Of a DNA stretch of 46,769 nt, positions 45,188-46,769 are shown piece after piece. The notes under the pieces were generated by a model. That model was given only the letters and a program-made list of their open reading frames with translations. It did not search any database and was not told where the DNA came from. Source of the stretch: Chloroflexota bacterium (lineage in GTDB: Bacteria > Chloroflexota > Anaerolineae > Anaerolineales > UBA11579); the NCBI GenBank assembly GCA_009391835.1, contig QWJF01000012.1, positions 1 to 46,769 of the forward strand, read 5' to 3'. The number at the start of each line of letters is the position of its first letter. The stretch's first letter is position 1. Made by a program: the position numbers and the translations under genes.

Positions 45188-45859
45188 ATGCAAATGAGCG
45201 AGCTAGCCGAACGAGCCCAGGCGGTGCATGAGCGCCTGCTTGACTTTTACGGGTATCCGACATGGCGCAATCCCCTAGAGCCACTAGATGAACTGGTTTC
45301 CACCATCCTTTCACAGAATACGAACGATATAAATCGGGACGTGGCCTTTAATGCGTTGAAGGCGGCTTTTCCTAGCTGGGAGGCGATGCGGGATGCGGAC
45401 GAGGAAGCGGTGGTGGAGGCGATCCGACCGGCGGGGTTGGCCAACCAGAAGGGGCCGCGTATCCAGGCCGTGCTGCGCGATATCACGGCGCAACGGGGTG
45501 ATCTATCGTTGGAATTTTTGAAGGATATGGATGCGGAAGCGGCCAGCGCATGGCTGCAAGGCTTCAATGGCGTGGGGCCGAAGACGGCGGCGATTGTGTT
45601 GCAATTTTCACTGGACAAGCCGGCCTTCGCGGTGGACACGCATGTTTACCGGGTGACGGGGCGGATTGGCTTGCGGCCCCCCAAAATGACGGCGGAAAAA
45701 GCGCACACCTTTCTTGAGGGTCTGCTGCCGCCGGAGACCTATTATGCGGCCCATCTGAATATCATCCGGCTGGGGCGGGAGATCTGCCAGGCGCGCACAC
45801 CGAACTGCGCGGAGTGCCCGCTGCAGGATTTGTGTGATTATTACTCGGCGAATTACTAA
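45188..45859 (+). CDS. nth: Endonuclease III-like DNA glycosylase/AP lyase
   Basis: The product has 223 residues. It removes oxidised pyrimidines and cuts abasic sites in base-excision repair. The helix-hairpin-helix LQGFNGVGPKTAAIVL carries the catalytic Lys132, and Asp150 in AVDTHVYRV is the second active-site residue. The iron-sulphur loop has Cys200, 207, 210 and 216 with the 6-2-5 spacing of the family. The start may be ATG 45188 or 45194. The family also includes MutY-like branches, but the catalytic Lys supports a bifunctional Nth-type enzyme. Confidence 0.92.
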   Translation: MQMSELAERAQAVHERLLDFYGYPTWRNPLEPLDELVSTILSQNTNDINRDVAFNALKAAFPSWEAMRDADEEAVVEAIRPAGLANQKGPRIQAVLRDITAQRGDLSLEFLKDMDAEAASAWLQGFNGVGPKTAAIVLQFSLDKPAFAVDTHVYRVTGRIGLRPPKMTAEKAHTFLEGLLPPETYYAAHLNIIRLGREICQARTPNCAECPLQDLCDYYSANY

Positions 45860-45880: not shown

Positions 45881-45941
45881 ATAAGCCTTCTTAATGTAAA
45901 ATATGTAATGCCAATAAATCACGTCAGCGGGGGCATTGAAC

Positions 45942-46697
45942 GTGGCAGTTAACACCCCTACGCTTTTCGCATTGAGAATGTCTGAGGAACCGGAGTTAGC
46001 CGAAGGGACGACTTCGCCCCTAACAATTGCTTGTGCGCCAATAGATGCAATAACCGAGACTAGGGATTTCGTTGTTAAATTTAACACAAAGCTTGCCTAT
46101 TCAAAAAATGGTTTTGCCTTTGGCATTGCATCCGAGATAATTTGTGGGCATTTGGCGGAATTTTTTCAGTTGCCCAATCCGGAATTTGCGTTTATAGAAA
46201 TTAGCAATGCATTCAAGGCTTCTATAGCAGCCAACACAAGAATTCCCGCCCACATCCTTGAGATAATAAATCAAAATGTGCATGCAAACAACTTTGGCAG
46301 TCAGATAATTGAACTTGATACAACGTCACCATTATCCATTCAAATCTACAATCCCGCTCAACTAGAAGCTGCTTCTAATGTTTTTGCTTTTGATGCCTTA
46401 ATCTTCAATGCCGACCGAACACTACAGGCACCTAACATGTGGGCGATTGACGATGAATTTATCATGTATGATCATGAAAAGGCCTTCAACTTTTTGTTAT
46501 CAAATCAGGACCAGATTGAGGAACGATTCGAGTTTCGAACCCCCACGGGGACATCTTTTATGCATGAGCATATCTTCTATCCGGTTCTACGCAAAAGAGA
46601 CATTCCTTTTAATTTTTTTATAGGTGGAGTCAGACATTTAGTGCAACGAATGAAGGATAATTCGTTCGTATGCAAAACACAAAATACATGCGCCTAA
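45942..46697 (+). CDS. HipA-like kinase-fold protein (HipA_2 type), 3' end probably truncated
   Basis: The product has 251 residues from GTG 45942, eight bases after GGGGG; TTG 45936 is an alternative. Residues FVVKFNTKLAYS match the ATP-binding Lys strand, EIICGHLAEFFQLPNPEFAFIEI the following helix and strand, and DALIFNADRTLQAPNM then DEFIMYDHEKAF the catalytic and metal-binding Asp/Asn/Asp-His blocks of the HipA_2 group. HipA kinases phosphorylate targets such as GltX. No HipB-like antitoxin is adjacent. The AT-rich gene ends in a tail (CKTQNTCA) that overlaps the start of an IS30-type transposase in another frame, so its natural C-terminus may be lost. Confidence 0.7.
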   Translation: MAVNTPTLFALRMSEEPELAEGTTSPLTIACAPIDAITETRDFVVKFNTKLAYSKNGFAFGIASEIICGHLAEFFQLPNPEFAFIEISNAFKASIAANTRIPAHILEIINQNVHANNFGSQIIELDTTSPLSIQIYNPAQLEAASNVFAFDALIFNADRTLQAPNMWAIDDEFIMYDHEKAFNFLLSNQDQIEERFEFRTPTGTSFMHEHIFYPVLRKRDIPFNFFIGGVRHLVQRMKDNSFVCKTQNTCA

Positions 46698-46769
46698 GCA
46701 CCAGCGAGCGCGAGGAAGTGAGCCGTTCGCTGGCAGTGGGAATGACCCAGAGGGAGATCGCCAGGCTTA
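46670..46769 (+). mobile_element. IS30-family transposase, 5' end only
   Basis: From ATG 46670, or more likely ATG 46688 (MRLSTSEREEVSRSLAVG), the frame reads to the right edge with no stop. MRLSTSEREEVSRSLAVGM and TQREIARL match the N-terminal helix-turn-helix of IS30 transposases, which bind the IS ends. GC content rises relative to the HipA-like gene. The coding start lies inside the end of the HipA-like reading frame. The left inverted repeat of the element was not identified; an AACGAA/TTCGTT pair (46645-46666) is nearby. Confidence 0.7.

What the first reader, a model, noticed from the sequence alone, without database searches (positions are those of the whole stretch)
45942..46769. HipA-like kinase gene running into an IS30-type element
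The HipA_2-type gene keeps its nucleotide and metal-binding blocks but ends in a short tail encoded by sequence that also holds the start of an IS30 transposase. This suggests the IS inserted in the 3' part of the gene. No HipB-like gene is adjacent, so the protein may be an orphan kinase or a dead remnant.
Basis: partly seen in the sequence, partly recalled or inferred. Interest (0 to 1): 0.5.

Follow-up and report, generated by a model that had tools for sequence, protein, structure and literature searches.

The report
IS30-interrupted HipA–DUF3037 phage-defence pair
A jumping DNA element has landed near the end of a kinase gene that normally forms a two-gene, toxin-antitoxin-like phage-defence unit; the likely missing end and the partner gene were found on another piece of the same genome, so this is best read as a broken copy of a known system, not a lone kinase.

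Summary
An IS30-type left end begins exactly at 46623, inside a HipA_2 kinase gene (45942–46622, 227 codons); the frame then runs 24 codons into the IS. The window is a whole contig (C4) that stops in the repeated IS. Comparing all 128 contig ends of the bin, I found the IS right end on contig C24. Beyond it lie 56 codons that fit the missing kinase 3' end (in frame if TA is the target duplication), whose stop overlaps the start of a 293-aa DUF3037 gene. Support for C4–C24: the piece is the best foreign-contig hit of a kinase profile among 1109 frames (13.2 bits, next 4.3); a DUF3037-like frame follows the kinase in 69 of 71 relatives (33 weak; two run off their contigs); in 12 of 29 relatives the flanking genes of C4 and C24 are direct neighbours. 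The pair matches PADLOC PDC-M66A/B, published as DS-6/HipAD. So 'orphan kinase' is wrong; 'IS in the 3' part, probably dead' is right: in a confident model of an intact relative the lost part is the last four helices. Most likely an acquired, AT-rich defence module with its toxin half switched off and its antitoxin-type gene intact. Ordinary, well resolved.

The parts
45942..46622 (+). 5' part of the HipA_2 (PDC-M66A / HipAD-type) kinase gene, 227 codons from GTG 45942 (TTG 45936 in the same frame also possible)
   Evidence: PF20613 E 3.7e-12; PDC-M66A E 7.7e-29, profile 12-215 of 270; K50 (46089), E65 (46134), D158 (46413), N165 (46434), D177 (46470) conserved
46621..46622 (.). left copy of the probable 2-bp target duplication TA; second copy at contig C24:148-149
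   Evidence: sequence; weak by itself, as TA also ends the left flanks at C23 and C34
46623..46769 (+). left 147 bp of an IS30-type insertion sequence, cut by the contig end
   Evidence: same sequence at the ends of C3, C23, C28 and (56-58 bp) C34, with different flanks
46623..46645 (+). left terminal inverted repeat; 18 of 23 bases match the right end at C24:125-147 (same bases at C47)
   Evidence: 1 of 93,492 window positions (both strands) reaches 18 of 23, necessarily the left end itself
46623..46697 (+). 24 IS-encoded codons and stop that end the truncated kinase frame
46672..46769 (+). start of the IS30-type transposase gene (open at the contig end)
   Evidence: HTH_38 partial, below cut-off; the C-terminal part at C24:3-137 matches NF033563 IS30 at E 0.009, below cut-off
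45188..45859 (+). upstream neighbour, HhH-GPD DNA glycosylase gene; synteny marker, not part of the system

Best explanation
The feature is the toxin half of a HipA-like kinase / DUF3037 two-gene defence module (PDC-M66, DS-6, HipAD), broken by an IS30-type element after codon 227. The rest of the gene (56 codons) and the intact DUF3037 gene lie on contig C24 behind the right IS end; the assembly broke in the repeated IS. Shown: the exact left IS boundary, a matching right end with a kinase-like 3' piece and DUF3037 behind it, and the flanking synteny. Known from papers on relatives: the kinase is needed for defence, and removing DUF3037 makes the module toxic, so DUF3037 appears to restrain the kinase. 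Inferred: the module was acquired horizontally between a glycosylase gene and a thiamine pyrophosphokinase gene; the insertion removes the last four helices of the kinase fold, leaves the catalytic residues in a shortened protein that is probably unfolded or inactive, and so switches defence off while the antitoxin-type gene stays intact.
For: IS left end exact and repeated at contig ends. All 128 contig ends compared; right end with an 18/23 inverted repeat at C24 and C47. C24:150-317 (56 codons, frame kept if TA is duplicated), then DUF3037 at C24:317-1198 with ATGA overlap. DUF3037 PF11236 E 2.8e-12, the only match above cut-off in the genome; PDC-M66B E 1e-53; window piece PDC-M66A E 7.7e-29. 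With a profile of 31 uninterrupted kinases the C24 piece scores 13.2 bits; among 1109 frames from all contig ends the best one that is neither piece scores 4.3; its aligned columns begin where the window piece stops. A DUF3037-like frame lies within 1.2 kb downstream in 69 of 71 kinase relatives, 36 of them at E < 1e-12, 33 weaker, up to 2e-5; the other two run off their contigs. Separate searches with the window kinase and the C24 DUF3037 protein hit neighbouring genes in the same two plasmids (the kinase match in Hymenobacter is weak, E 0.06). In 12 of 29 relatives' loci the C4 glycosylase gene is followed by the C24 thiamine pyrophosphokinase gene, 182-289 bp apart in 10 of the 12. GC 0.41-0.42 on both sides against about 0.53-0.66 outside. 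Model of the intact relative L222 (pLDDT 94.0): the break falls at its residue 207, so most of helix 204-212 and helices 215-223, 234-246 and 248-259 are lost. Function of relatives: passages of PMC12548924 and PMC13092281.
Against: No read or contig spans the IS, so C4-C24 adjacency is inferred. The C24 kinase piece alone is a weak match (13.2 bits, E 0.0026; only 3.9 bits with a first, more mixed profile; no PADLOC hit and only Pfam noise). The 2-bp duplication does not discriminate, and C47's flank would also fit C4 with a 3-bp ATA. In 17 of 29 relatives' loci no pyrophosphokinase gene was seen within the 1.5-kb flank; all 12 positives are among the 18 loci of the window's own family. The kinase is divergent (23-36% identity over best segments) and lacks two tryptophans found in 93% of the aligned relatives, so it may have been decaying before the insertion. 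Neither expression nor activity was tested.
Confidence: 0.9

Rival explanations
1. The truncated 251-aa protein is still a working kinase, restrained by DUF3037 or freed from it, so the module still acts.
For: The catalytic and metal-binding residues lie before the break; the frame ends cleanly with a 24-aa tail.
Against: The lost segment is part of the fold: in the model of L222 it makes four helices, and structural alignments to solved HipA-like kinases run through it, for example CtkA 3akk_D Z 16.6 to model residue 253 and HipT 8ezs_B Z 13.1 to residue 251. A freed active toxin would be expected to harm the cell.
Confidence: 0.08
2. C4 joins C47 or an unbinned contig and not C24; the C24 piece belongs to another kinase copy.
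For: C47's flank starts ATA, like the last 3 bases of the C4 flank; the bin is only 83% complete.
Against: Only one PF20613 match and one DUF3037 match above cut-off in the own genome. C47 continues into a hairpin-like stretch (by eye) and an oppositely oriented gene. Synteny links the glycosylase of C4 to the pyrophosphokinase of C24.
Confidence: 0.04
3. The IS boundary is an assembly chimera, or only part of the population carries it, and other cells have an uninterrupted gene.
For: The contig is part of a fragmented, 83% complete bin and ends in a repeat.
Against: The same IS sequence abuts different flanks at five contig ends, the right end is found with matching repeats, and C24 continues the frame. 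Mixed alleles cannot be excluded with the data held.
Confidence: 0.05

Closest known systems
HipAD / DS-6 (HipA-family kinase + DUF3037 protein; Science 2026, PMC13092281) and PADLOC PDC-M66
   Same: Same two gene families in the same order with overlapping stop and start; the proteins match the PDC-M66A and PDC-M66B models
   Different: Kinase gene interrupted by an IS after codon 227; DS-6B is described with DUF3037 and DUF1829, whereas only DUF3037 was found here above cut-off; no function tested here
HipA/DUF3037 genes beside Retron-Sda1 (PLoS Biol 2025, PMC12548924)
   Same: Same gene pair; there the kinase is needed for defence and loss of DUF3037 is toxic
   Different: No retron genes were looked for here; the own copy is broken
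HipBA and HipBST toxin-antitoxin kinases
   Same: HipA-type kinase fold: a model of an intact relative aligns to Shewanella HipA (4pu3_A Z 13.2, rmsd 3.8, 201 residues) and Legionella HipT (8ezs_B Z 13.1, rmsd 3.7, 199 residues)
   Different: Partner gene is DUF3037, not HipB or HipS; HipA_2 is the only Pfam family above cut-off in the window kinase
IS30 family insertion sequences
   Same: HTH_38-like start, IS30-like transposase C-terminus, imperfect inverted repeats, probable 2-bp duplication
   Different: Only the two ends were seen; a search of the bin with the IS30 transposase model found only the C-terminal piece

Membership tests
HipAD / PDC-M66 | HipA-like kinase of the PDC-M66A family | tested here: met
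   E 7.7e-29 over profile 12-215 of 270; the only other PADLOC match is HEC-01B at E 0.017
HipAD / PDC-M66 | DUF3037 protein of the PDC-M66B family encoded directly downstream | tested here: met
   E 1e-53; its start overlaps the stop of the kinase 3' piece on C24; the link from C4 to C24 is inferred
HipAD / PDC-M66 | uninterrupted kinase gene | tested here: not met
   IS left end at 46623; right end at C24:147
HipAD / PDC-M66 | protects against phage; DUF3037 neutralises the kinase | not testable with these tools
   published for relatives only
HipBA | adjacent HipB helix-turn-helix antitoxin gene | tested here: not met
   the gene upstream is a DNA glycosylase, the gene downstream a DUF3037 protein
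IS30 family | IS30-type transposase | tested here: inconclusive
   only the two ends were seen; HTH_38 24.3 bits at best and NF033563 15.7-16.5 bits, all below cut-off
IS30 family | imperfect terminal inverted repeats | tested here: met
   18 of 23 bases
IS30 family | short target duplication (2-3 bp, recalled) | tested here: inconclusive
   TA on both sides at C4/C24, but TA also fits two other left flanks and C47 is unresolved

The most novel reading that the evidence does not exclude
The IS acts as a switch on a defence toxin: cells carrying the insertion keep the restraining DUF3037 gene, pay no toxicity cost, and coexist with cells that carry the uninterrupted module. The kept DUF3037 could also neutralise related kinases carried by phages or plasmids, as an orphan antitoxin.
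Probability: 0.07. Interest if true: 0.45.

Novelty: new member of a known kind. Interest (0 to 1): 0.22.

Why it matters
It shows how a repeat-broken assembly can turn an interrupted two-gene defence system into a false 'orphan kinase', and that contig-end matching plus synteny can recover it. Biologically it looks like a costly toxin half being lost while the restraining gene remains intact.

Tried and rejected
The DUF3037 protein alone found nothing in 399 other genomes of the phylum, although the 30 PF20613 loci fetched from that phylum all hold a DUF3037-like frame: single-sequence search is insensitive here. The IS DNA had only partial matches in 4 plasmids, covering 21-31% of it. Sequence searches of solved structures gave no HipA structure (best: E 0.49; E 0.02, an unrelated secreted-effector entry); the fold comparison did. 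Foldseek's own ranking listed CtkA, Fam20A and PI4KII first. C53's start looked like a right IS end but recurs only within C53. A second group of five contig ends belongs to a different, IS3-like element (family name recalled). Rfam found nothing at gathering thresholds in C24:1-2000. The promoter scan around the gene was near the shuffled expectation (3 against a mean of 1.6). Considered and rejected: HipBA member, orphan kinase, C4-C47 join, C24 piece as a chance frame.

Full report
What was checked. The window is the whole contig C4 (46,769 bp) of a 64-contig, 83% complete genome. The ORF at 45936/45942-46697 matches HipA_2 (PF20613, E 3.7e-12, residues 65-195, profile 39-163 of 240) and PADLOC PDC-M66A (E 7.7e-29). 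In an alignment with 26 relatives the invariant residues that fit a kinase active site are present (K50, E65, D158, N165, D177; their roles are recalled from kinase biology).

The IS boundary. The last 147 bp of the window (46623-46769) recur at the ends of contigs C3, C23 and C28, and the first 56-58 bp at the end of C34, each with a different flank; the shared sequence begins at GGTGGAGTCAGACA. This fixes the left end at 46623. The kinase frame continues for 24 codons into the IS and stops at 46697, overlapping the transposase start at 46672. All five left ends are at contig ends, so the assembler did not pass the repeat.

Finding the other side. Searching them for the inverted form of the left end gave two clear candidates, C24 and C47, with 18 of 23 bases matching, preceded by a frame that ends like an IS30 transposase (NF033563 positions 242-266 of 267, E 0.009, below its cut-off). 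Among contig ends there are five left ends and two right ends; the other right ends are presumably unbinned. A search of the bin with the IS30 transposase model found only this C-terminal piece, reported at C24, so the middle of the element was not seen.

The missing gene end. Behind the IS on C24, positions 150-317 read 56 codons in the frame left by the window piece if TA (46621-46622 and C24:148-149) is the target duplication. The stop overlaps the ATG of a 293-aa ORF (ATGA) that matches DUF3037 (PF11236, E 2.8e-12) and PDC-M66B (E 1e-53). The 56-aa piece alone has no PADLOC match and only Pfam noise (E 0.13 or worse). I scored it with a profile of 31 kinases: 29 of the 71 loci plus two plasmid kinases. 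Dropped beforehand were 9 incomplete or unusual ones, 32 actinobacterial ones whose DUF3037 match is weak, and L246, which has an internal stop. The piece got 13.2 bits, E 0.0026. Among 1109 frames from all contig ends (which include both pieces themselves) the best other frame got 4.3 bits; in the alignment the piece begins where the window piece stops. A first, more mixed profile of 12 kinases gave it only 3.9 bits.

Independent support. (1) Separate tblastn searches with the window kinase piece and with the C24 DUF3037 protein both hit Hymenobacter NZ_CP043645 (kinase E 0.06, DUF3037 5e-26) and Pseudorhodobacter NZ_CP039965 (kinase 6e-4, DUF3037 1e-24), at neighbouring positions. (2) Of 71 kinase relatives, 69 have a DUF3037-like frame within 1.2 kb downstream: 36 at E < 1e-12, 33 weaker, the weakest 2e-5; L233 and L286 run off their contigs. 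The 30 PF20613 loci fetched from the window's phylum (of 81 matches in 80 of 400 genomes) also all hold a DUF3037-like frame. (3) Of 29 relatives' glycosylase loci examined (55 relatives had a match), 12 have the thiamine pyrophosphokinase gene of C24 next to the glycosylase gene of C4; all 12 are among the 18 loci of the window's own family. The gap is 182-289 bp in ten of them, 872 bp in L207 and 1063 bp in L201, where an unrelated 265-aa frame sits. In the other 17 no pyrophosphokinase gene was seen within the flank held. None of 100 relatives has a kinase match at E 0.001. (4) GC is 0.41-0.42 on both sides of the IS against about 0.53-0.66 in the neighbouring windows. (5) In the own genome PF20613 has one match and DUF3037 one above cut-off, on C24 (a second, C18, is at E 0.19). 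Together these place an AT-rich, probably acquired, two-gene module between two conserved genes.

What the break removes. The kinase of L222 (a Nitrospirae bacterium) was modelled with the 27-row alignment: mean pLDDT 94.0, pTM 0.92. The window piece ends at its residue 207, so most of helix 204-212 and helices 215-223, 234-246 and 248-259 are lost. Among the 1000 chains that Foldseek ranks highest, the best by VIA-align are CtkA (3akk_D, Z 16.6, rmsd 2.9, 210 residues) and PI4KII; Shewanella HipA (4pu3_A, Z 13.2, rmsd 3.8, 201 residues) and Legionella HipT (8ezs_B, Z 13.1, rmsd 3.7, 199 residues) are also listed, with alignments that run to model residues 251-257. The lost part is therefore part of the shared fold, which makes inactivation likely but does not prove it.

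Function. Passages of PMC12548924 report that deleting the HipA kinase eliminates defence against phage Bas51, that deleting DUF3037 is toxic, and that the authors see a kinase toxin neutralised by DUF3037; PADLOC labels the pair PDC-M66 there. Passages of PMC13092281 describe the same kind of pair as DS-6, renamed HipAD, where mutating a predicted catalytic residue causes loss of defence; an Escherichia phage record annotates the two genes HipA toxin and HipD antitoxin. The main text of the 2021 HipA phylogeny (PMC8262856) has no occurrence of DUF3037 (passages). In the present genome the kinase lacks its last 56 residues, so defence is most likely lost; the DUF3037 gene is complete, but what drives its expression is unknown.

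Verdict. It is an interrupted member of a published defence family. I searched the paper library for DUF3037 with HipA, HipAD, DUF3037 alone, HipA-like kinase, and IS/toxin-antitoxin terms; the system itself is in print, and by title no listed paper is about this locus.

Noticed in passing
C23 end (L147:2617-4113): Another copy of the same IS sits at the end of a 499-aa open frame with TPR repeats, so it probably interrupts that gene too.
   Followed up: partly
contig ends C26e, C29e, C36s, C63s, C64s: Five contig ends share the right end of a different, IS3-like element (family recalled), a second repeat that breaks this assembly.
   Followed up: partly
L201 between glycosylase and pyrophosphokinase genes: In one relative the same intergenic site holds an unrelated 265-aa frame that looks by eye like a phosphotransferase-type kinase; the site may be a place where cargo genes come and go.
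   Followed up: no
C24:1196-1427 (L145): The stretch before the pyrophosphokinase gene resembles a TPP riboswitch by eye, but Rfam gave no match at gathering threshold.
   Followed up: partly
L151-L180: In 27 of the 28 loci of the same phylum that the script could parse, a short frame (127-151 aa) that looks like DUF3037 starts near the kinase end, estimated overlap about 20 nt, unlike the 293-aa form here: two architectures of the pair.
   Followed up: partly
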